Virus record (IMG/VR): IMGVR_UViG_3300029286_000042
Coordinates: 1 to 59,293 of that record
From: a virus
DNA: 59,293 nucleotides
Reading direction: 5' to 3' (one strand)
Within the stretch, counting starts at the first letter, position 1, and every line of letters begins with the position of its first letter. The notes under the pieces are model-generated. The model was not told the DNA's origin. It did no database searches and saw only the letters and a list, made by a program, of their open reading frames with translations. Positions 43,087 through 57,034 of this stretch are shown here, one piece after another. Both the position numbers and the translations under genes were made by a program.

Positions 43087-43163
43087 TGGTCGGAGAGGCG
43101 GGATTCGAACCCGCGGCCCCTCGCTCCCAGGGCGAGTGCGCTGCCAGGCTGCGCTACTCTCCG
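43087..43163 (-). tRNA. tRNA-Pro (UGG) with C33
   Basis: The cloverleaf is complete: acceptor CGGAGAG/CTCTCCG, D arm GCGC/GCGC, anticodon arm CTCGC-CCTGGGA-GCGAG, T arm GCGGG-TTCGAAT-CCCGC, discriminator A and encoded CCA. The anticodon is TGG (Pro). Base 33 is C rather than the nearly universal U. It is 72 bases from tRNA-His. Confidence 0.9.
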
Positions 43164-43235
43164 TGCGCCCCGGGTCGCCGTCAATTCTCGCCGCAGACTG
43201 GCTGTCCTCGCCGGCGGTCTGCAATTCCCCGGAGC

Positions 43236-43309
43236 TGGTAGGTCGGACGGGAATCGAACCCGTATCCCAAGGACCACAGCCTTGTGCGCTTCCTTTGCGC
43301 CACCGACCT
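43236..43309 (-). tRNA. tRNA-His (GUG)
   Basis: The cloverleaf is complete: acceptor AGGTCGG/CCGACCT, D arm GCGC/GCGC, anticodon arm CAAGG-CTGTGGT-CCTTG, T arm ACGGG-TTCGATT-CCCGT and encoded CCA. Anticodon GTG is His. The discriminator is A, with a G in the -1 position of the genome. A73 is unusual for bacteria except Alphaproteobacteria. Phages supply tRNAs to match their codons. Confidence 0.9.
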
Positions 43310-47515: not shown

Positions 47516-48184
47516 TCAGGTACTTCCTGTGACATGCGAGCAAGGTGGAGAACAGCTTGGCCTCTTCCATCCTTCCCCCCCTCGAGCGCCAATGGCGCGG
47601 GCGACCGTCGACAACCCATCCACCGCCCCGTCACGCTCGGCCTTGTCGCCGAACAAGAAGGTGAGCGTCGGCCGCTTCTGCTTCCCTCCGCCGCCACCAT
47701 CGCCCTCGCCTTCACCCTCCCCCGGCTCCGGCACCTTCTCGATGCCCCCGAGATCCATCCGCGTGACAATCCCGCGAAGCTCGGCCTCACTCCACCGCGT
47801 CGTGCGCGAGAGTTCCCCGATCGTCACCCCGCTCGCCGTGAGCCGCTCGATCACGAGGCGATGCTTTTCGCGGTCGACATCGAAGTGCGGCAGGAGCTGA
47901 TGGGCGATGAGCTTGCCCTCCTCCTCCGAGATCGGTCCGTGGTTGTAGGCCAGCACCTGCCCGATCTCCAGATCGAGGAACACGTCGAGACGGTGGTTGC
48001 CATCCAGAATCTCGTAGGTGCCATCCCCAAGCTCGCGGACGTTGCACGACTTGATGACGCCGTTCTCTGTCATCGACGCCTTGAGCTTCTGCGTCTTCCC
48101 CGCATCATCCCCCTTGATATTCCAAGGGGCCTTGCGCATTTGTGCCACCTCGACGACCTGGAAGCGTTCGAGCAGATCACTCAT
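47516..48184 (-). CDS. ParB-like protein 2, probable C-terminal frameshift
   Basis: Predicted 222 residues as read, paralogous to the neighbour: VVEVAQMRKAPWNIKGDDAG, KLKASMTENGVIKSCNV, YEILDGNHRLDVFLDLEIG and HGPISEEEGKLIAHQLL. The last 22 residues after GARGG look unnatural (proline and cysteine-rich). Moving back one base at the GGGGGGG run (47575-47581) gives EEAKLFSTLLACHRKYL and a stop at 47493, just before the next gene. The start overlaps the end of dpdA by eight bases, so it is translated with it. Confidence 0.72.
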   Translation of the reverse strand: MSDLLERFQVVEVAQMRKAPWNIKGDDAGKTQKLKASMTENGVIKSCNVRELGDGTYEILDGNHRLDVFLDLEIGQVLAYNHGPISEEEGKLIAHQLLPHFDVDREKHRLVIERLTASGVTIGELSRTTRWSEAELRGIVTRMDLGGIEKVPEPGEGEGEGDGGGGGKQKRPTLTFLFGDKAERDGAVDGLSTVARAIGARGGEGWKRPSCSPPCSHVTGST

Positions 48185-49037
48185 CCCACGACACCCCCCG
48201 CAGCGCCCAGATGCGCGTTAGATCCTTCTCAGCCTTCAGCATCTCCCCGACGTTCCTCCTCAACCGGGCCAACGACGGCCCTGTCCCGCGGCCACGCAGC
48301 GCAGGATCGACTGGTAGATCCGGCTCCTCGCTCAGCCTGTTGTACGCGAACCCCTCTGGATTGCCCGTCCACGTGATGATGATACCGTAGCCCGCACAGA
48401 TCGAAGTCGACGCGCTGTCCACAGAGAACCAGGGCAGAGCGAGCATCTCTCGGAGCCCGGTCACCGCCAGCCCGTGTACGCGAATCCTCCCCGACCGGAA
48501 CGCCTCGACGTGCCGCCCGATACACTCCTCGTAGAACGCCAGGTGCGAGTTTGTTCCCAACCCATTCTGCGGCGAGATACAGAAGCGTGGTCGCTCCTCC
48601 ACCATCCTCTGAAGCCAGGCGAATCCCTCCCCTTGGTGGTAGACCGGCAGACACGGGAGGCCAGCAGCTTCGATCTCCGCCATGTTCTCCCAGCCCTTCT
48701 GCGCGCTGTACTCGACCTCCTTCTTCGTCGGCTTGTCTCCGAACCGCCCCGGAATGACATCCAGGTTGATGAACTCCAGGCACCGCGCTTGGGCGACCTC
48801 CTTCAGCGCCTTGCCGAACGCCACGTAGTCGGCGAGAGGGATTGTCGCTCCCTTTGTCCACGCGCTGAAAGCCCCCGAGTCGATGATGACGTCACCAGGG
48901 AACAAAGCGATCGACGACAGCAGCCGGTCTGCCGGCCCAAGAGTCCGCAGGAAGTGGTACGAGATCAGCATGTGCGGCGTGATCTCTTCGACTGCATCCC
49001 ATCCGAACGAGTTCGCAACAGCCTGGTAGATTCGCAT
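48177..49037 (-). CDS. dpdA: DpdA-type DNA 7-deazaguanine transglycosylase
   Basis: Predicted 286 residues from an ATG that overlaps the upstream stop (TGATG). Phage DpdA is a paralogue of tRNA-guanine transglycosylase that swaps guanine in DNA for a 7-deazaguanine. Family blocks: LISYHFLRTLG, VIIDSGAFSAWTKG (aspartate-53 region), FINLDVIPGRFG, LPCLPVYHQGE, ISPQNGLGT, VHGLAVTGL and ALPWFSVDSASTSICAG. The barrel is complete. Adjacent folE, queD, queE, queC and queF supply its substrate. TGT zinc-binding cysteines are not apparent, as in other DpdA proteins. Confidence 0.85.
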   Translation of the reverse strand: MRIYQAVANSFGWDAVEEITPHMLISYHFLRTLGPADRLLSSIALFPGDVIIDSGAFSAWTKGATIPLADYVAFGKALKEVAQARCLEFINLDVIPGRFGDKPTKKEVEYSAQKGWENMAEIEAAGLPCLPVYHQGEGFAWLQRMVEERPRFCISPQNGLGTNSHLAFYEECIGRHVEAFRSGRIRVHGLAVTGLREMLALPWFSVDSASTSICAGYGIIITWTGNPEGFAYNRLSEEPDLPVDPALRGRGTGPSLARLRRNVGEMLKAEKDLTRIWALRGVSWDE

Positions 49038-49936
49038 CAGAGTGTGTAGAGGTACGCTCCCACCTCGTAGAAGGGCCAGCCATGCTTGAACGTCCCGAGC
49101 CTCTTGTTCAGAGTCAGCCCGCCGTTCACCCACTGCACGCCGCGCTCTGCGACTTCGCGCAGCACCCAGAGCTTGACGTAGTTTGCCACCTGCGAATGAG
49201 CCCCCTCCACGAAGTGCAGCGTCGCGTACGTCATGTCGAACGCCACGGCGCCGTCGATGTAGAGACAGCAGATCGCAAACGGCTTGCCTTCAACCATCAC
49301 CAACCGGATGTGCGCATCGAAGAACGCCCGGAACTCCTCCAGCCATCTGACGATGACTCGCCAGTACCCGGACGCGACGAACTGCCGAAGGTCGAACGGG
49401 TTCCGCTCAGAGATCCGCCGCGCCTTGTCCGCGGCCCATCGGTCGAAGAGATCCCTCATCACCGGCAAGAACTCCGCGGCGTTCCCCGGCGTCACCTCGA
49501 TGCTCTCGCAGCCATGATCCGCCAGCCAGCGCAACGGGTAGGTGAGGTGGTTGTAGCGACTCTTCTTCCCATCATACGCCTGCGGGTCGAACACTCGCCC
49601 GAGATCCCAGAGTGTCTCCTTCTGCTGCGTACCATGAATCGGAGTCCGTAGCTGATCACTCGACAGCAGCTTCAGCCCCTCCACCTCAGCGGCGAGCCGC
49701 CCCGCTACCACCCCGTCGACGCAGTACGCCGTGCACCCCGTGGTAGTGTCCATGATGACCGCGCCAGCCGAGAGAAACGCGCGACCAGCCCTCATCTGAT
49801 CCAAGAGTCCGTGATACCCGCACAGCACCGGGAACGCGAGGTCGTGAATCCGCGTCCTCGGACTCTCTGCTCGCCACTCTTCGAACGACAAGAGGAGGGC
49901 AGAGTGCTGGTCGCAGAACTCCTGAACCGACGTCAC
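49037..49936 (-). CDS. GNAT-fold acyltransferase-like protein
   Basis: Predicted 299 residues from a GTG two bases after the queF stop. The N-terminus is VTSVQEFCDQHSALLLSFEE. The C-terminal half, IRLVMVEGKPFAICCLYIDG, AFDMTYATLHFVEGAHSQVA, NYVKLWVLREVAERGVQWVN and GGLTLNKRLGTFKH, resembles GNAT-like domains of the FemX and DUF2156 type, which transfer acyl or aminoacyl groups to amines. Because it lies between queF and dpdA it may decorate preQ1 or modified DNA. The donor is not predictable and this role is inference. Confidence 0.6.
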   Translation of the reverse strand: MTSVQEFCDQHSALLLSFEEWRAESPRTRIHDLAFPVLCGYHGLLDQMRAGRAFLSAGAVIMDTTTGCTAYCVDGVVAGRLAAEVEGLKLLSSDQLRTPIHGTQQKETLWDLGRVFDPQAYDGKKSRYNHLTYPLRWLADHGCESIEVTPGNAAEFLPVMRDLFDRWAADKARRISERNPFDLRQFVASGYWRVIVRWLEEFRAFFDAHIRLVMVEGKPFAICCLYIDGAVAFDMTYATLHFVEGAHSQVANYVKLWVLREVAERGVQWVNGGLTLNKRLGTFKHGWPFYEVGAYLYTL

Positions 49937-49937
49937 G

Positions 49938-50366
49938 CTATTCCTCCGCCGCCTCTTCCTTCCCACTCTCCGCCACCACCCGCGTCGTGATCCCGCCGCG
50001 AGCGTTGAAGTCCCCGACGACCATGATCCACCGCGGACTGAGGAGCGCCACAAGGTCGTCGCAGATCTTGTTCGTGATCGACTCCATGAATCCCTGGAAG
50101 CTGCGGAAGGCGAAGAGGTAGAGCTTCAGCGACTTCGACTCGACGCACAACTCGCGCGGCTGGTAGACGATGGTGATCGTCGCGAAGTCAGGCTGACCGG
50201 TCACCGGACACAGAGACGTGAACTCCGCAGTCTGAAACTCGACTTTGTACGGACGCCCCGGCGCCTTGTTCGAGAACGTCTCCAAGATCGAGACATCCGG
50301 CGCCGTCGGGTAGCGCGTCTCCTTCGCCCCCAACGATTGCAGCCCCTCTCCTTCCCTCTGCGTCAT
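49938..50366 (-). CDS. queF: NADPH-dependent 7-cyano-7-deazaguanine reductase QueF
   Basis: Predicted 142 residues, a unimodular QueF. It reduces the nitrile of preQ0 to the aminomethyl of preQ1 with two NADPH. FTSLCPVTGQPDFATITI contains the nucleophile Cys53 and the acid Asp60. ESKSLKLYLFAFRSFQGFMES is the QueF motif for NADPH and substrate. RWIMVVGDFNARGGI ends the T-fold. The start overlaps folE's stop (ATGA). Its presence means the base placed in DNA could be preQ1, not only preQ0. Confidence 0.92.
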   Translation of the reverse strand: MTQREGEGLQSLGAKETRYPTAPDVSILETFSNKAPGRPYKVEFQTAEFTSLCPVTGQPDFATITIVYQPRELCVESKSLKLYLFAFRSFQGFMESITNKICDDLVALLSPRWIMVVGDFNARGGITTRVVAESGKEEAAEE

Positions 50367-50953
50367 CTCCGTCCTCCTTCGATCAGGCTGAAGAACTCCG
50401 CTCGCGTCGTCGGCTCATCTCGGAACGTCCCGAGAAGGCACGACGTCGCCATCTCTCCCTCAGACTCCGCGCCGCGGAACCTCATGCAACTGTGCGTCGC
50501 TCGGACTACCACCCCGACACCCGCCGGCCTGAGAACCGGGTGCCCAGCCAACGCCTCCGCGATCTGCTGCGTCATGCGCTCCTGGATCTGGAAGCGCCTA
50601 GCGAACGCCTTGACGAGACGGGCGATCTTCGACAAGCCGACAACCTTTCCCCCCGACGGCAAGTAGCCGACGGACACCGTTCCCCAGAACGGCATGAGGT
50701 GATGCTCGCACGTCGAGACGAAGTCGATGTCCCTGACCACCACCATCTGGTCGTAGGACGAGGAGAACACACGACTGAGGAGCGCATCGACGTCCACCGC
50801 CGCGCCGCTCGTCAGCTCCTCCCACATCCGAGCGATGCGCTCTGGCGTTCCCCGGAGGCCATCACTCTGCGCCATCTCCTCGCCGACGAGCAGTGTCACA
50901 GCCTCCCCGAGCTTCTCGACCAACGCCTGATGCGCCATCTTCTGTTGTGCCAT
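50363..50953 (-). CDS. folE: GTP cyclohydrolase I
   Basis: Predicted 196 residues, usual length. It converts GTP to dihydroneopterin triphosphate, the first step to 7-deazaguanine. Zinc ligands are CEHHLMP (Cys82, His85) and SCMRF (Cys156). GYLPSGGKVVGLSKIARLVK, RRFQIQERMTQQIAEAL and GVGVVVRATHSCM are family blocks. The start is an ATG ten bases after queE. It is one of five consecutive steps in this operon. Confidence 0.93.
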   Translation of the reverse strand: MAQQKMAHQALVEKLGEAVTLLVGEEMAQSDGLRGTPERIARMWEELTSGAAVDVDALLSRVFSSSYDQMVVVRDIDFVSTCEHHLMPFWGTVSVGYLPSGGKVVGLSKIARLVKAFARRFQIQERMTQQIAEALAGHPVLRPAGVGVVVRATHSCMRFRGAESEGEMATSCLLGTFRDEPTTRAEFFSLIEGGRR

Positions 50954-50963
50954 TTGTGCTCCC

Positions 50964-51578
50964 TCACCTGATCCCCAACAGCTTGTGCAGTTGGACGCTG
51001 ACCCGCCATCCTTCGACACGATACGCGAGTTCCAGCGCCCGCCTGACGTTGTCCTGATTGATCTCCCATCCATCAAACACCGGCGACAGGATGTGCTCCG
51101 CATCAGGATACGCAGAACGCAAGTGCAAGAGCCAACCTTCCCCCGTCTCCTTCGTCACCGGGACGCGGATCTCGTCCACCTCTCGCGCCACGCTCGCATC
51201 GAGCGGCGCCCCAACCTTCGGGCTGACCGTCACCCAGTCGAGTTCGTCCTCCGGGATACAGAGCGTGCCGTTCGTTTCGAGCCCTTGCCACCATCCTAGG
51301 TGGTGGAATCCAGAGAGTAGCTCGCCACTCAGCTGGAGGAGAGGCTCACCGCCCGTGAAGATCACCCGCTTGCTCGTTCCGTAGAGATCGGCAGCACGCG
51401 CCTGATTGATGATCTCCTCCGCGCTCATCTCCACGACATCCGTCACCGGCTGATCGCACCACGGGCACTGGAGGTTGCAGCCTGCGAATCGTACGAAGAC
51501 CACCGGCACCCCGACGTTCGCCCCTTCGCCCTGGAGCGAGTAGAAGATCTCCATGATCCTGTAGCTCTTCTCAGGCAT
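50964..51578 (-). CDS. queE: 7-carboxy-7-deazaguanine synthase
   Basis: Predicted 204 residues. This radical SAM enzyme makes 7-carboxy-7-deazaguanine from CPH4. The cluster motif CNLQCPWC (Cys34, Cys38, Cys41) is the CX3CX2C form. IFYSLQGEGANVG opens the family fold, VIFTGGEPLLQ and LETNGT follow, and HILSPVFDG and VSVQLHKLLGIR close it. It overlaps queD by eight bases. Confidence 0.93.
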   Translation of the reverse strand: MPEKSYRIMEIFYSLQGEGANVGVPVVFVRFAGCNLQCPWCDQPVTDVVEMSAEEIINQARAADLYGTSKRVIFTGGEPLLQLSGELLSGFHHLGWWQGLETNGTLCIPEDELDWVTVSPKVGAPLDASVAREVDEIRVPVTKETGEGWLLHLRSAYPDAEHILSPVFDGWEINQDNVRRALELAYRVEGWRVSVQLHKLLGIR

Positions 51579-51954
51579 AGCACGGCCCCTCAGTCATCCC
51601 ACCGATCACTGCTTGCGCGTAGCTTCCGACCGTCTCCCAGACCCTGACGCAGGCCCCATGCTTCTCCCCGCCACACGGAAGCGAGAAGATGTGCGCAGCG
51701 ATGATCCTCGCCATGTTCTCCGCCGTCGGCTCCACACCCTTCTTGAACTGCGGCATGTCATTGAGGAGCTGATGGTCGAAGAGGCGCACCAGCGCGCCGA
51801 TCTTCGCGAAGTCGACCAGCATCCCATCCGTTCCGATCGCCCCATCGACCCAGACCTCGACCTTGTACGAGTGCCCGTGCATCCGCTGGCATGCCCCCTC
51901 GTACTCAGGCAGCTTGTGGGCCGCTTCGATCATCAGCGTCTTGTAGACTCGCAT
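51571..51954 (-). CDS. queD: 6-carboxytetrahydropterin synthase
   Basis: Predicted 127 residues. It turns dihydroneopterin triphosphate into CPH4. Zinc ligands His13, His26 and His28 (AAHKL and MHGHSY) and the catalytic Cys22 are visible. LVDFAKI, FDHQLLND and PTAENMARII are family blocks, and RVWET contains the conserved glutamate. The gene overlaps the end of the glycosyltransferase by 50 bases. Confidence 0.93.
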   Translation of the reverse strand: MRVYKTLMIEAAHKLPEYEGACQRMHGHSYKVEVWVDGAIGTDGMLVDFAKIGALVRLFDHQLLNDMPQFKKGVEPTAENMARIIAAHIFSLPCGGEKHGACVRVWETVGSYAQAVIGGMTEGPCYA

Positions 51955-52924
51955 CTGTCTCCTCCTTCTCCATCACCCATGCGCGCCTCACTCGTCGGAG
52001 GAACGCCGCTGCCGCCTTTCCGCTCGACCCGCGCAACTCGACCGGCAGGTAGCTGTCGATGAATCGCTTCTCCTCTTCCGTGATCCCCTCGTTCACCGCT
52101 TCCCTGACAGCCGCCGGGAAGTCCTCCGGCGACTGGACATGCCTCCCGATCCCCTCAGAATAGACCCTGCCGAGCGGCGCGTCCCCGCACTGCGCGACGA
52201 CGAACTCTCCGATAAGCCAGTCCGGGAACACCACCGGCACCCCCAGCGCCCATGCCTCGAACACGGTCCCCGAGACATCGCCGATGCACGCCTTCGCGAA
52301 GTGGAGGACGTCGCGCGCCAGAACACTTGACCGCCCCGACACCGCAGGGTGCCCTACCCTGACAATCTCATGCGCCGCGTCGAGCGCCTTCGAGAAGTAG
52401 AGCGGCGGCAGGACGTACTCGCCGATGAACGCACTGTGCGACGGCGCCCAGAGGACAACCGGCTTCGGATTCTTCGCCGCGAGCCTCGCATCTCGAAGAA
52501 CGTGCTGCCCGTAGAACTCTTTGAGCGCAGGATCAGAGGCGAACGCCTGATGCCAGCGGAACGCCTCGTCGAGGCCCGGATGGCCGACCGTCACCATCTT
52601 CGCCCGCTCCACACCTCTCGCCGCCAAGCAGTCCGCGGCCATCGGCCCGGGTACTCCGATGTAGTCGAACTGCGACAGGCGTTCGACCGTCGTCCCCAAG
52701 ACCTTCTGCAAGATCCCGTGCGATATGTAGAGGTCGCAGCACTCCCTCGGCCTCCCGAAGACGTCCGTCTCCTCGCGGAAGAAATGGACGTTGAACCGCA
52801 ACGGGTCCGCAGCAGCCCCGACGCTCACCTCAACCTCAGGCGGCAGGTGTTTGGCAATCGCCCAGACAAACATCGAAACGAGGTGAGCGTATCCAGCCCC
52901 AGGATTGATGAAGTGGACGCCCAC
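51905..52924 (-). CDS. GT-B fold transferase, CDP-glycerol glycerophosphotransferase-like
   Basis: Predicted 339 residues from a GTG with GGGGAGGTG upstream. LYISHGILQKVLG, FDYIGVPGPMAAD, PVVLWAPSHSAFIGEYVLPP and KACIGDVSGTVFEAWALGVP followed by VVFP match TagB/TagF-type enzymes, which move glycerol-phosphate or similar from a CDP carrier to glycan. With the LicC-like gene nearby, a CDP-alcohol pathway is possible. UDP-sugar transferases of related fold are an alternative. Confidence 0.65.
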   Translation of the reverse strand: MGVHFINPGAGYAHLVSMFVWAIAKHLPPEVEVSVGAAADPLRFNVHFFREETDVFGRPRECCDLYISHGILQKVLGTTVERLSQFDYIGVPGPMAADCLAARGVERAKMVTVGHPGLDEAFRWHQAFASDPALKEFYGQHVLRDARLAAKNPKPVVLWAPSHSAFIGEYVLPPLYFSKALDAAHEIVRVGHPAVSGRSSVLARDVLHFAKACIGDVSGTVFEAWALGVPVVFPDWLIGEFVVAQCGDAPLGRVYSEGIGRHVQSPEDFPAAVREAVNEGITEEEKRFIDSYLPVELRGSSGKAAAAFLRRVRRAWVMEKEETDASLQDADDRSGPQAA

Positions 52925-52926
52925 GC

Positions 52927-54051
52927 TTAGAACACCTCCCCGATGACCTGCTCCCACTTCCCTCGCCATGTCCGGTAGTCGAACGCCGAGCGGACCACTT
53001 CGAGCGCACAGTCCGCAAACCGCAGGCGCTCGCCCCGATTCTCGTACGCTCTACGAATCGCCGCCACGAGTTCCGGCACCGTCGGCTGGACCAGGTAACC
53101 GTTGAACCCGTCGACGATCATGTTCGGGAGCCCGCCGACGACCGAGGCCACCACCGGCACACCACTCGCCATCGCCTCCAGGCAACTGAGTGATGTTCCT
53201 TCCGCCCCACGCGTCGGGATGAGCGCGAGATCCATTCCCCTGTAGGCTTCGGGCATCTTCGCCATGTCCAGGCCACGGAACGAGACTCGGCCCATTGCCT
53301 CCTTTGCCAGGAGAGCGATCTCCCTCTTCCATCTTTGATCGCCAGCACCCGACGCCGTGGACCCGAAGAAGTCGAAGTGAATGTCAGGGATCTCAGGGAG
53401 CAAGAGCCGCGCCGCCTCGATCGTCAGGTCCACTCCACGCGCCTCGCATAGTCGCCGTGGGAACATGACGTGGAACCCTTGGTGCACCCCATCCCCGGGC
53501 GTGAAGAGTTGGGTGTCGACATAGTTCGGGATGTAGCAGAACTTCGTATCGAGCCCCGGCGCCACGCCACGGACGTAGTTGATGATGTTCGTGTCATTCG
53601 CCACAACCCTCGCCAATGGCCTGATCGCGTCGGTCACGGCCTTCGACCCCTCTGGCTCACGGAAGGCGTTGCCGGCGGGTCCCCGGAGATCCCACCACAC
53701 ACCATGCGAGACACCGATGCTCCGCTCCTTTGGAGACGGCCCGCCGAGATCGAAGCGGAAGTAGATTGCGCGCTCCACATCCCGTGTCGCCGCTTCGAAC
53801 GCCTCCCCCAGCTTCCCATCAGGCGTGAACAGAGAGGTCGCCACTCCCAACGAGCGGACCTCCATGCGCTTGTAGTAGGCCGTCCATGGCTCATTAGTCG
53901 ACGCCTGGTACACGAGGACGTCGAACCCCATCTCTCGAAGCAACTGGCGAATGTCGACGAGATACCGCTCCCCGCCTCCCATGCACACGGACCCACCCGA
54001 GAGATCGAAGAAGCTCGGCGTCAGGATCGCTACACGCTGCCGCTTAGCCAT
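52927..54051 (-). CDS. Glycosyltransferase family 4-like
   Basis: Predicted 374 residues. The GT-B fold has an N-terminal Rossmann region (AILTPSFFDLSGGSVCMGGG) and the C-terminal family block AEGTSLSCLEAMASGVPVVA followed by SVVGGLPNMIVDG. FPRRLCEARGVDLTIEAARL binds the nucleotide sugar. It transfers sugar to an unknown acceptor, such as surface glycan or, less commonly, modified DNA. It overlaps the LicC-like gene end by 22 bases. Confidence 0.85.
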   Translation of the reverse strand: MAKRQRVAILTPSFFDLSGGSVCMGGGERYLVDIRQLLREMGFDVLVYQASTNEPWTAYYKRMEVRSLGVATSLFTPDGKLGEAFEAATRDVERAIYFRFDLGGPSPKERSIGVSHGVWWDLRGPAGNAFREPEGSKAVTDAIRPLARVVANDTNIINYVRGVAPGLDTKFCYIPNYVDTQLFTPGDGVHQGFHVMFPRRLCEARGVDLTIEAARLLLPEIPDIHFDFFGSTASGAGDQRWKREIALLAKEAMGRVSFRGLDMAKMPEAYRGMDLALIPTRGAEGTSLSCLEAMASGVPVVASVVGGLPNMIVDGFNGYLVQPTVPELVAAIRRAYENRGERLRFADCALEVVRSAFDYRTWRGKWEQVIGEVF

Positions 54052-54698
54052 CTGAAAGGACCTCGCTTCGCCATCTCCACGCAGTCGTCAGGCGTATCTA
54101 GTTCAAGGATGAACTCGCTCGGAACACCGACAGTCGCCACCGCCCCCAACTCCCCGCAGTCGAAGAGATGCCGCTGCTGGAAGCACCACTCCCCTGTGCG
54201 CCCCAAGAGCTTCGCCATCACCGCACGGACCCGCTCCGCCCCCTCCGTCCTCCCCACCGCGAACACGCCGGCGTGATCGCTATCCTCCCTCACAAGCCGA
54301 GAGACCCCGACATCCTCCGCCTTCTCCATCAGCCGCAGCAAGAGGTACGGCGCCACCATCGTATCGCCGTTGATGACAACCGTCGGCGCCTCGATCCGGT
54401 CAGCAACCAACGACAGCGAGTAGAGGTTATCAGACGTCTGCCAGTCAGTGTTGTAGAAGACTTCCAACCGGGAAGAAAGGCGACGCGCCTCTTCCTGAAG
54501 CTCGCTCGCATACCGCCCGCCGACGATCACCACATCCAACGCCTCGCCGCGCGCAAGAGCGACCTCCGTCATCGCTCCGACAATCTCCGCGAGGACCGTC
54601 CTCCCATTCGGCGTGTAGAGGAGGGGCTTTGCCACTCCACCTCTGACGCTCCCCGCCATCCGCCCGCCGTCGCCCGCAGCCAAGATGATTGCCCGCAT
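54030..54698 (-). CDS. LicC-like NTP transferase
   Basis: Predicted 222 residues, ATG overlapping phnE's stop (TGATG). MRAIILAAGDGGRM with AKPLLYTPNGRTVLAEIV is the nucleotide and metal-binding part. VFYNTDWQTSDNLYSLSLVA recalls LicC and AEP cytidylyltransferases, which attach CMP to phosphocholine or 2-aminoethylphosphonate. VVINGDTMV is the metal-binding DxD-like site. It may make a CDP-alcohol for its neighbour; UDP-sugar pyrophosphorylase is the alternative. Confidence 0.7.
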   Translation of the reverse strand: MRAIILAAGDGGRMAGSVRGGVAKPLLYTPNGRTVLAEIVGAMTEVALARGEALDVVIVGGRYASELQEEARRLSSRLEVFYNTDWQTSDNLYSLSLVADRIEAPTVVINGDTMVAPYLLLRLMEKAEDVGVSRLVREDSDHAGVFAVGRTEGAERVRAVMAKLLGRTGEWCFQQRHLFDCGELGAVATVGVPSEFILELDTPDDCVEMAKRGPFRWLSGSV

Positions 54699-55486
54699 CA
54701 CAGCCCCCTTGTCTCCCCTAGTACCTTCCTCCTGATGACCGCGCTCCCCCGATCCATCAAGAAGACCGCCGCCAAGATCACGAGCATGCACGCCGCAACT
54801 TCCTTCGGCCTGAACAAGCGTATCGACACAAGGAGCGGCACACCAATTCCCCCCGCCCCGACTAGGCCGAGCATCGTCGAGCTACGGACGCAGTATTCCA
54901 GGTAGTAGAGAACATAGCTGATGAGCAGGTAGCTCGTCCCCGGCAACAGGACGTGAACGACGATCTGGAACCGCGACGCTCCATCCACCTTCGCCGCCTC
55001 GATTGGCTCCATGTCTGCGGCCTCGAACGCCTCCGCGAAGTATCTGCCCATCGCCCCGGTGCAGTGGAAGACGAGTCCCAAGACGCCAGGAAACGGCCCG
55101 AGGCCGACCATCGACACAAAGAGCAGCGCGTAGAGAAGCGACGGGATTCCGCGCAGCACGTTGAGCACCATCCGCGCCCCGTGGTAGAGCCACGGCCACG
55201 GACAGACGTTCCGCGCAGCGCACAGGCCCATCACCACGGCACCGAGCGACGCCCAGAACGTCGCAACGAGAGCAATCGCCAAGCTCTCCCCCAACGGCTT
55301 GAGGAGACTCGGCACCTTCGCCCAGGCCGGCGGCCACATCGAGGCGATGTACTGCACGATGTTCGGGAACCCCTTGACCAAAGCGACAGGGCTCGTCTCC
55401 GTCTCCACCATGCACCACGAGACGAGGGCGAGCCCCAACGGCAGGACAAGCCACCAGACACCCCTATGCGTCAGGTGCGTAGTCAA
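54698..55486 (-). CDS. PhnE-like ABC transporter permease
   Basis: Predicted 262 residues from a TTG, overlapping phnD's end by 23 bases. At least five hydrophobic spans are seen. The EAA loop MEPIEAAKVDGASRFQIVVH and RSSTMLGLVGAGGIG are typical of phosphonate permeases. It forms the channel that works with PhnD and an ATPase. No phnC ATPase gene lies in the window, so the host enzyme or a gene beyond the edge would be needed. Confidence 0.82.
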   Translation of the reverse strand: MTTHLTHRGVWWLVLPLGLALVSWCMVETETSPVALVKGFPNIVQYIASMWPPAWAKVPSLLKPLGESLAIALVATFWASLGAVVMGLCAARNVCPWPWLYHGARMVLNVLRGIPSLLYALLFVSMVGLGPFPGVLGLVFHCTGAMGRYFAEAFEAADMEPIEAAKVDGASRFQIVVHVLLPGTSYLLISYVLYYLEYCVRSSTMLGLVGAGGIGVPLLVSIRLFRPKEVAACMLVILAAVFLMDRGSAVIRRKVLGETRGL

Positions 55487-56339
55487 GCTCGTCGACGATC
55501 TGACGAATCACTCCGAACGGGTCAGGAGCCGCCGACGCGAATCCATCCAACGCAAACGGCGCGCACGCTTCCTTCGGCACACTCAACCACGCCGCTGTGA
55601 GTCGCGCGAGAAACTCTGGTGCGAACCCCGGCCGCACGATGACCGCGTTTGTCGGAATCGGGTCCGACTGTAGGGCGACAACGAACTGCCCATCGGCGAT
55701 GTTCCCCGCCGCGAGATTCTTCCCAAGCCGGAAGTCGTTGCAGCACGCGAGATCGACCGTCCCCTGCGCCAGAGCGATGATCGCCGCATCGTGCGATCCC
55801 GCGTAGTAGACCGTGGAGAAGTCCTCATCCTTCAACCCGAGGCGCTGGAGCATCATCCGAGGCACCAAGCCACCCGTCGTCGACGTTGGATCGACATACG
55901 CCAACCGCAGGCCCCTGAGCTGGTCCGCCGTCGCGCTCCCCGACTGAATCCCGAGGTCCGTCCGGGCAAGGATCAGCGCGTAGTCGAAGGGCTGGTGCGT
56001 GTTCGCCTTCACATCCACCACCAAAGCCGAGGCACCGAACAACGCTTCAGCCTGGACCACGTTGAACGCGCCGACGCGCGCAAGGTCTGCGAAGCCGAAC
56101 CTCATCGCCTGAAGTACCGCCGCGTAGTCTGTCGCCACCACGTACTTGACAGGGATGCCGAGCTGGTCACTCACCCACGCAAGGATGGGCCGGAACGCCT
56201 CGACATCATCCGACGCGCTCCCCGACGGCACGTTGACGAAGGTCAGTTCCGATGGATCAGCTTGCTGTCCGCTCGCCACAAAGAGAACCGTCGCCACGAC
56301 CAGCGCGACGACGATGCTGATGCCCGCTACCCGCTTCAT
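55464..56339 (-). CDS. PhnD-like periplasmic phosphonate/phosphite-binding protein
   Basis: Predicted 291 residues. An N-terminal hydrophobic signal (about 5-23) targets it outside the cytoplasm. VKYVVATDYAAVLQAMRFGF, LARVGAFNVVQAEALFG, YVDPTSTTGGLVPRM, VYYAGSHDAAIIALAQGTVD and QSDPIPTNAVIV match PhnD/PtxB-type proteins that bind phosphonate, phosphite or phosphate. Such a subunit is rare in phages and lies between queC and phnE. Confidence 0.85.
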   Translation of the reverse strand: MKRVAGISIVVALVVATVLFVASGQQADPSELTFVNVPSGSASDDVEAFRPILAWVSDQLGIPVKYVVATDYAAVLQAMRFGFADLARVGAFNVVQAEALFGASALVVDVKANTHQPFDYALILARTDLGIQSGSATADQLRGLRLAYVDPTSTTGGLVPRMMLQRLGLKDEDFSTVYYAGSHDAAIIALAQGTVDLACCNDFRLGKNLAAGNIADGQFVVALQSDPIPTNAVIVRPGFAPEFLARLTAAWLSVPKEACAPFALDGFASAAPDPFGVIRQIVDELDYAPDA

Positions 56340-56353
56340 CTCTCCCCCTTCTC

Positions 56354-57010
56354 TCACTCGTACTCTGTCGGGTCTATGACTCCTGCCAACCGGAACGCAG
56401 CACGACGCTCCACGCATGTGCCACAGACGCCGCAGTGCTTCTCCCTCCCATTGTAGCACGACCACGTCAATCCGAACGGCGCACCGACCTCCGCACCCTG
56501 CGCGACGATCTGTGCTTTGGTCATGTAGAGGAACGGCGTGAGGAGCAGGATCGGTTCCCAGTCACAGACTGCGAGCGCCCCAGTCATCGCCAAGACGAAC
56601 GACCCCCGACAGTCAGGGTAGATCGCGTGGTCGCCGGCATGCGCCCCGTACGCCACCGCATTCGCCTGCGAGTTGATCGCGTACGCCGCAGCCGCCGCAA
56701 GCAGCAGCATGTTCCGGTTCGGGACGACCGTGGACTTCATCGAGTCCGCTTCGTAGTGGCCTTCCGGGATCGCCTGGCCGCTCGCCTCGATCAGCGACGA
56801 GCTGTCGAAGATCGAAGAGAGCGCCGACAGGTCGAGCCGCTTCCCTTCCACCCCGAAATGTCGCCACACATCCTCTGCCGCCTGAAGCTCGCGCGCATGG
56901 CGCTGGCCGTAGTCGACGGAGAACGGAAGAACCTCATGGCCTTGTGCCACGAGGCTCGCCAGCAAGACAGTCGAATCTAGCCCGCCGCTGTGAACGACGA
57001 CCACCCGCAT
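56354..57010 (-). CDS. queC: 7-cyano-7-deazaguanine synthase
   Basis: Predicted 218 residues from an ATG; a GTG three codons earlier is alternative. It converts 7-carboxy-7-deazaguanine to preQ0 using ATP and ammonia. SGGLDST is the PP-loop. VPNRNMLLLAAAAAYA and AHAGDHAIYPDCR are family blocks. The zinc site is CYNGREKHCGVCGTC at the C-terminus. It opens the modification operon. Confidence 0.93.
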   Translation of the reverse strand: MRVVVVHSGGLDSTVLLASLVAQGHEVLPFSVDYGQRHARELQAAEDVWRHFGVEGKRLDLSALSSIFDSSSLIEASGQAIPEGHYEADSMKSTVVPNRNMLLLAAAAAYAINSQANAVAYGAHAGDHAIYPDCRGSFVLAMTGALAVCDWEPILLLTPFLYMTKAQIVAQGAEVGAPFGLTWSCYNGREKHCGVCGTCVERRAAFRLAGVIDPTEYE

Positions 57011-57034
57011 GGTCGACACCCCCTTCGCTCCGCT

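What the first reader, a model, noticed from the sequence alone, without database searches (positions are those of the whole stretch)
54698..56339. PhnD and PhnE transporter genes embedded in a phage operon
The pair has correct signal sequence, binding motifs and EAA loop, so it may function with a host ATPase. Phosphonate or phosphite uptake could supply phosphorus during infection. They are flanked by queC and a LicC-like gene with overlaps, so gain was not random at the operon end. The ATPase gene is absent in the window.
Basis: partly seen in the sequence, partly recalled or inferred. Interest (0 to 1): 0.7.

Follow-up and report, generated by a model that had tools for sequence, protein, structure and literature searches.

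The report
Phage transporter pair lacking its motor
This phage carries two of the three parts of a bacterial importer for phosphonates or similar phosphorus compounds, next to surface-sugar and CTP-activating genes, so it probably helps decorate a surface with an imported phosphorus group rather than feeding the phage phosphorus.

Summary
PhnD (55464-56339) and PhnE (54698-55486) are intact genes inside a genuine phage record, directly upstream of a LicC/PntC-like cytidylyltransferase (54030-54701). No ABC ATPase gene was found in the record, nor in a 99.5% identical contig that extends it by 7.9 kb.

The P-nutrition reading is not the best one. Four other phage contigs carry close relatives, also without PhnC. 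PhnE from these five contigs forms one supported clade. Its sister clade is the PhnE of DPANN, Patescibacteria and Chloroflexota loci built as phnD-phnC-phnE plus a LicC-like gene. A LicC-like gene lies within 2.5 kb of phnE in 18 of 21 loci of these two clades and 0 of 24 other phnE loci. All 16 cellular genomes lack C-P lyase and a bona fide phosphonatase. The phage neighbourhoods hold glycosyltransferases, LicD or a TagD-like cytidylyltransferase.

The best model is that PhnDE borrows a host PhnC to import an organophosphorus headgroup, which is activated with CTP for glycan or surface decoration. This is inferred. PhnD keeps the oxyanion site but lacks both the phosphite cap and the E. coli 2-AEP cap, so the ligand is open. 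It is a new variant of a known kind.

The parts
55464..56339 (-). phnD: periplasmic/anchored phosphonate-type substrate-binding protein (291 aa)
   Evidence: PF12974 1.5e-48, TIGR01098 over cut-off; oxyanion-site residues Tyr72, Ser153-Thr-Thr and His183 kept
54698..55486 (-). phnE: PhnE-type ABC permease (262 aa)
   Evidence: TIGR01097 249.7 bits over cut-off 216.7; the coupling-loop positions A164, G169 and P182 are invariant in alignment A6
54030..54701 (-). LicC/PntC-like CTP-dependent nucleotidyltransferase, overlaps phnE by 4 nt
   Evidence: PF12804; AF2 model pLDDT 85, best PDB folds include LicC 1jyl and PntC 6pd2; profile of the family hits LicC 7.5e-30 and PntC 9e-24
52927..54051 (-). 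GT4-type glycosyltransferase
   Evidence: PF13692/PF00534 about 1e-22
51905..52969 (-). unassigned protein in the same run of genes (possible GT-B type transferase; TagF/Glyphos_transf tested and not found)
   Evidence: no Pfam match over cut-off, no PF04464 match, AF2 model useless (pLDDT 40)
56354..57019 (-). queC, upstream neighbour (14-nt gap)
   Evidence: TIGR00364 over cut-off
49938..51954 (-). queD, queE, folE, queF: rest of the 7-deazaguanine set that encloses the cassette

Best explanation
phnD and phnE are a phage-specific, ATPase-less importer pair belonging to an organophosphorus 'salvage and tailoring' cassette. PhnD captures a small phosphonate (2-aminoethylphosphonate-like) or a phosphomonoester headgroup outside the membrane. 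PhnE passes it inward, using the host's PhnC-type ATPase. The overlapping LicC/PntC-like enzyme couples the headgroup to CMP. Glycosyltransferases and, in some relatives, a LicD-type transferase move it onto a glycan of the infected cell or virion. Shown: gene identity, recurrence, clade membership, absence of PhnC, cytidylyltransferase fold, conserved oxyanion site. Inferred: use of host PhnC, the ligand, CMP activation, the acceptor.
For: A PhnD/PhnE pair without PhnC occurs in L014, L016 and twice in L017, and L015 begins inside phnE; no ABC_tran over cut-off in any of those records. PhnE of the window, L014, L015, L016 and L017a form one clade (99/89), sister (99/94) to DPANN/Patescibacteria/Chloroflexota PhnE; nutritional PhnEs (C-P lyase, phnX, PtxD) fall outside. 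A LicC-like gene lies within 2.5 kb of phnE in 18/21 loci of the two sister clades against 0/24 other phnE loci. The window enzyme's nearest solved folds include LicC and PntC, and it keeps the catalytic Arg and Lys named for PntC (PMC6697681). LicD over cut-off lies just upstream of phnD in L016, a TagD-like cytidylyltransferase in L017, glycosyltransferases and epimerases in L014/L015. The sister-clade genomes have no PhnJ (0/16) and no phosphonatase over cut-off (0/16); two have PEP mutase, one beside its phnDCE. PhnD keeps Tyr, STT/STS and His that bind PO3.
Against: No LicD or PEP mutase in the window. The window cytidylyltransferase is only 19-21% identical to those of L014/L015, so substrate identity cannot be assumed. 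PhnD lacks the E. coli 2-AEP cap (T/E/D becomes S/F/N). GpxB shows that this transporter family can carry glycerol phosphates (PMC12718374). The DPANN LicC-like enzymes next to phnE lack the catalytic Lys. The host, and whether it has phnC, is unknown. All phage records may be fragments.
Confidence: 0.58

Rival explanations
1. Phosphorus-supply AMG: PhnDE works with a host PhnC to import phosphonate, phosphite or phosphate for nucleotide synthesis during infection, as proposed by the first reader.
For: phnD has been listed among viral P-acquisition AMGs (PMC10987575). PhnCDE can carry phosphate (title of PMC6469041). A different phage, L019/L020, carries a complete phnD-phnC-phnE-phnE operon next to ribonucleotide reductase, which looks nutritional.
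Against: The window PhnE lies outside the nutritional PhnEs sampled. No C-P lyase or phosphonatase in these phages or in the 16 sister-clade cells. Neighbours are LicC/LicD/glycosyltransferase genes. The phosphite cap is absent.
Confidence: 0.2
2. The transported and activated compound is a phosphomonoester such as glycerol phosphate, phosphoethanolamine or phosphocholine, so the route is tag/lic-like and not a phosphonate route at all (a version of the best explanation with another cargo).
For: GpxB of the same transporter family binds G1P/G3P (PMC12718374). L017 has a TagD-like cytidylyltransferase beside phnD. L016's LicD also matches a cholinephosphotransferase model, below its cut-off. 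LicC is the best fold match.
Against: PhnD scores as phosphonate/phosphite type. The GpxB Arg/Thr pair is not seen at the aligned positions (Phe/Asn). PEP mutase sits beside phnDCE in L040.
Confidence: 0.3
3. The orphan pair titrates or jams host PhnC or blocks host uptake, acting as an inhibitor instead of an importer.
For: Lack of the ATPase across the phage clade.
Against: PhnD's oxyanion site is conserved and under purifying selection, and the linked cytidylyltransferase implies use of cargo.
Confidence: 0.06
4. Chance host-derived passenger or assembly chimera.
For: Only about five such IMG/VR records were found in repeated pattern scans of the viral set.
Against: Phage-only clade, recurring two-gene unit shared by otherwise unrelated phages, overlapping frames, uniform base composition.
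Confidence: 0.04

Closest known systems
PhnCDE / PtxABC phosphonate-phosphite ABC importers
   Same: PhnD and PhnE families with conserved PO3-binding residues and coupling loop
   Different: no PhnC; distinct clade; phosphite and E. coli 2-AEP caps both missing; no catabolic genes
Pnt (phosphonyl tailoring) pathway with PntC (PMC6697681)
   Same: LicC/PntC-type cytidylyltransferase, glycosyltransferases, LicD in one relative
   Different: headgroup would be imported, not made (no PEP mutase in the phages)
lic1 phosphocholine pathway (import, LicC, LicD)
   Same: logic of import, CTP activation and transfer
   Different: importer is an ABC-type PhnDE pair, not the choline permease LicB; no LicA kinase noticed in the window
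Phage P-acquisition AMGs (pstS, phnD; PMC10987575)
   Same: phage-borne binding proteins that would need host transporter parts
   Different: linked to glycan/CTP genes, with permease but no ATPase
GpxBCD glycerol-phosphate importer (PMC12718374)
   Same: same transporter family
   Different: has its own ATPase; different tail-binding residues

Membership tests
Phosphonate-bd / PhnD-type SBP | family profile PF12974 / TIGR01098 over cut-off | tested here: met
   165.7 and 151.3 bits
Phosphonate-bd / PhnD-type SBP | PO3-binding Tyr, Ser-Thr-Ser/Thr, His | tested here: met
   compared with PMC5700983
PhnD equivalog (TIGR03431) | curated equivalog score | tested here: not met
   168.6 against 261.1
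PtxB-type phosphite SBP | capping Tyr and lobe-1 Asp | tested here: not met
   Asn and Ser at these positions
E. coli-type 2-AEP PhnD | Thr14/Glu177/Asp205 cap | tested here: not met
   Ser/Phe/Asn
GpxB glycerol-phosphate SBP | Arg/Thr pair at the same places | tested here: inconclusive
   Phe/Asn at aligned columns, with an Arg one residue later
PhnE permease | TIGR01097 over cut-off and conserved coupling loop | tested here: met
   249.7 bits; loop positions A164, G169 and P182 invariant
Complete PhnCDE importer | PhnC ATPase encoded with it | tested here: not met
LicC/PntC cytidylyltransferase | fold | tested here: met
LicC/PntC cytidylyltransferase | catalytic Arg and Lys of GxG(T/S)Rx(4-8)PK | tested here: met
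   Arg and Lys kept in GDGGRMAGSVRGGVAK, read from alignment A8; Gly and Ala replace T/S and P
LicC/PntC cytidylyltransferase | substrate (P-choline or AEP) | not testable with these tools
   needs assay
Pnt tailoring pathway | PEP mutase | tested here: not met
   none in eight phage records
lic/pnt pathways | LicD-type transferase | tested here: not met
   none in the window; present in L016's record only

The most novel reading that the evidence does not exclude
A lineage of phages has turned a phosphonate importer into a two-part, host-ATPase-dependent device that salvages phosphonates to put phosphonyl groups on virion or host glycans. It matches an undescribed salvage-tailoring locus (phnDCE plus LicC-like enzyme) in DPANN archaea, Patescibacteria and Chloroflexota.
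Probability: 0.33. Interest if true: 0.85.

Novelty: new variant of a known kind. Interest (0 to 1): 0.62.

Why it matters
Phage phosphonate-transport genes are counted as phosphorus-nutrition AMGs in viromics. Here a phage-only clade lacks the ATPase and travels with CTP-activation and glycan genes, which points to surface chemistry. If right, it changes how such AMGs are read, predicts CMP-linked headgroups and phosphonate- or phosphate-headgroup-bearing glycans in infection, and points to a parallel uncharacterised locus in DPANN and Patescibacteria with no recognised phosphonate breakdown.

Tried and rejected
Phosphite specificity: rejected, cap residues absent. TagF/CDP-glycerol transferase for 51905-52969, suspected by eye: rejected, no PF04464 match; its AF2 model was too poor to use and it had no PDB sequence match. 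PhnC outside the window: none in the 7.9-kb extension held by G009. Bacterial contamination of the contig: rejected. Phage-collection hits in Pseudomonas phage Y12 (flagged UNVERIFIED) and the unannotated Staphylococcus 'phages': set aside, not used as evidence. L018: no phage genes seen and PhnE outside the clade, treated as probably cellular. Single-protein pattern scans found nothing; alignments were needed. L017b sits on a very long branch, so its place in the tree is not trusted. LicD in L014 is a motif-level resemblance only.

Full report
1. Observation. The window is one linear IMG/VR virus record of 59,293 bases. Nearly all genes read on the minus strand, and the record carries terminase, portal, head-morphogenesis, DnaB-helicase and DnaD-like genes. 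PhnD (55464-56339) and PhnE (54698-55486) are real and intact. phnD and phnE overlap by 23 nt, and phnE and the next gene by 4 nt; queC and phnD are separated by 14 nt. No ABC ATPase over cut-off occurs in the record. Contig G009 is 99.5% identical over window 21792-11 and continues 7.9 kb beyond the left end with no ABC ATPase. Base composition is even.

2. Neighbours. AlphaFold2 on an alignment gave pLDDT 85. Foldseek ranked LicC (1jyl) first, with PntC, the 2-aminoethylphosphonate cytidylyltransferase, fourth at the highest query TM-score among the listed hits (0.74). A family profile finds LicC at 7.5e-30 and PntC at 9e-24, then other nucleotidyltransferases from 1.5e-20. That profile and model are dominated by the cellular relatives, so this identifies the family, not the substrate. 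The Arg and Lys shown to matter in PntC (PMC6697681) are present in the window enzyme. Further downstream lie a GT4 glycosyltransferase and an unassigned protein. The cassette sits inside a full 7-deazaguanine set (queC, queD, queE, folE, queF, DpdA-like).

3. Recurrence in other phages. Alignment-driven scans of the IMG/VR set found L014, L015, L016 and L017 as close relatives. L014 has PhnD 56% and PhnE 62% identical to the window. Between the window and its record G001, DNA similarity is confined to phnD-phnE (1,466 nt, 65%). L015 starts inside phnE (69%) and follows with a nucleotidyltransferase overlapping by 4 nt, an epimerase and a GT2. L016 has LicD, phnD, phnE and a glycosyltransferase-like gene set between capsid and tail genes. 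L017 has two PhnD/PhnE pairs among glycosyltransferases, a TagD-like cytidylyltransferase and a LicC-like protein, in a record with terminase-, portal- and tape-measure-like proteins (structural genes judged by eye). None of these records has an ABC ATPase over cut-off. A separate low-GC phage (L019/L020) carries the complete phnD-phnC-phnE-phnE operon beside ribonucleotide reductase and replication genes: a nutritional type exists, but the window is not of it.

4. Cellular relatives. The genome scan returned DPANN archaea, Patescibacteria and Chloroflexota as the nearest cells (41-45% PhnE identity). Their loci read phnD-phnC-phnE followed by a LicC-like gene, often with a second nucleotidyltransferase or a CTP_transf_like gene upstream of phnD. 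L040 also has a PEP mutase with a fused cytidylyltransferase domain close by. In a tree of 39 PhnEs the phage sequences from five contigs form a clade (99/89), sister to these cells (99/94); PhnEs linked to C-P lyase, phnX or PtxD are outside. The cells were found with the phage PhnE as query, so closeness is partly by selection, but the gene-content association was not selected. A LicC-like gene is within 2.5 kb of phnE in 18/21 loci of the two clades and 0/24 others (Fisher p about 8e-10; related loci are not independent, and the profile was built from members of these clades). Of 16 genomes, none has PhnJ, none has a phosphonatase over cut-off, and two have PEP mutase; these are mostly MAGs of unstated completeness.

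5. Ligand. The window PhnD keeps Tyr, Ser-Thr-Thr and His at the PO3 site. It has Asn where PtxB has the capping Tyr and E. coli PhnD has Asp205, and Ser and Phe at the other cap positions (read against PMC5700983). So it should bind a PO3-bearing compound, is not phosphite-specific by sequence, and has an unknown tail preference. GpxB in the same family binds glycerol phosphates (PMC12718374), so phosphomonoesters remain open.

6. Mechanism and confidence. Shown: identity, recurrence, clade, absence of PhnC, cytidylyltransferase fold, purifying selection (dN/dS about 0.2, with dS near saturation). Inferred: import with host PhnC, CMP activation, and transfer to a glycan. The cargo could be a phosphonate or a phosphomonoester; my shares are about 0.33 and 0.3, both counted inside the overall 0.58 for tailoring (rounded). 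Nutrition gets about 0.2.

7. Literature. phnD is already listed among viral P-acquisition AMGs (PMC10987575). I found no paper in the held library describing phage PhnDE without PhnC, or its link to LicC-like genes; the library lacks most subscription papers.

Noticed in passing
window 48177-57019: Complete preQ1-type 7-deazaguanine set (queC, queD, queE, folE, QueF-II) plus a DpdA-like transglycosylase gene: probable dPreQ1-type DNA modification.
   Followed up: partly
window 49037-49966: Gene between queF and the DpdA-like gene with no Pfam or PHROG match; looks GNAT/FemAB-like by eye and might further modify the base.
   Followed up: no
window 40919, 41604, 44714, 46645: Four copies of a 78-bp direct repeat (83-87% identity to the reference copy) spread over 5.7 kb, possibly promoter/operator units.
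   Followed up: no
L019 5871-9412 (also L020): A different low-GC phage carries a complete phnD-phnC-phnE-phnE operon next to ribonucleotide reductase.
   Followed up: partly
L025-L040: DPANN, Patescibacteria and Chloroflexota share phnDCE plus LicC-like loci without C-P lyase or a phosphonatase over cut-off; the LicC-like enzyme after phnE has Gln or Val where the catalytic Lys is expected.
   Followed up: partly
window 43087-43309: tRNA-Pro(TGG) and tRNA-His(GTG) genes side by side.
   Followed up: no
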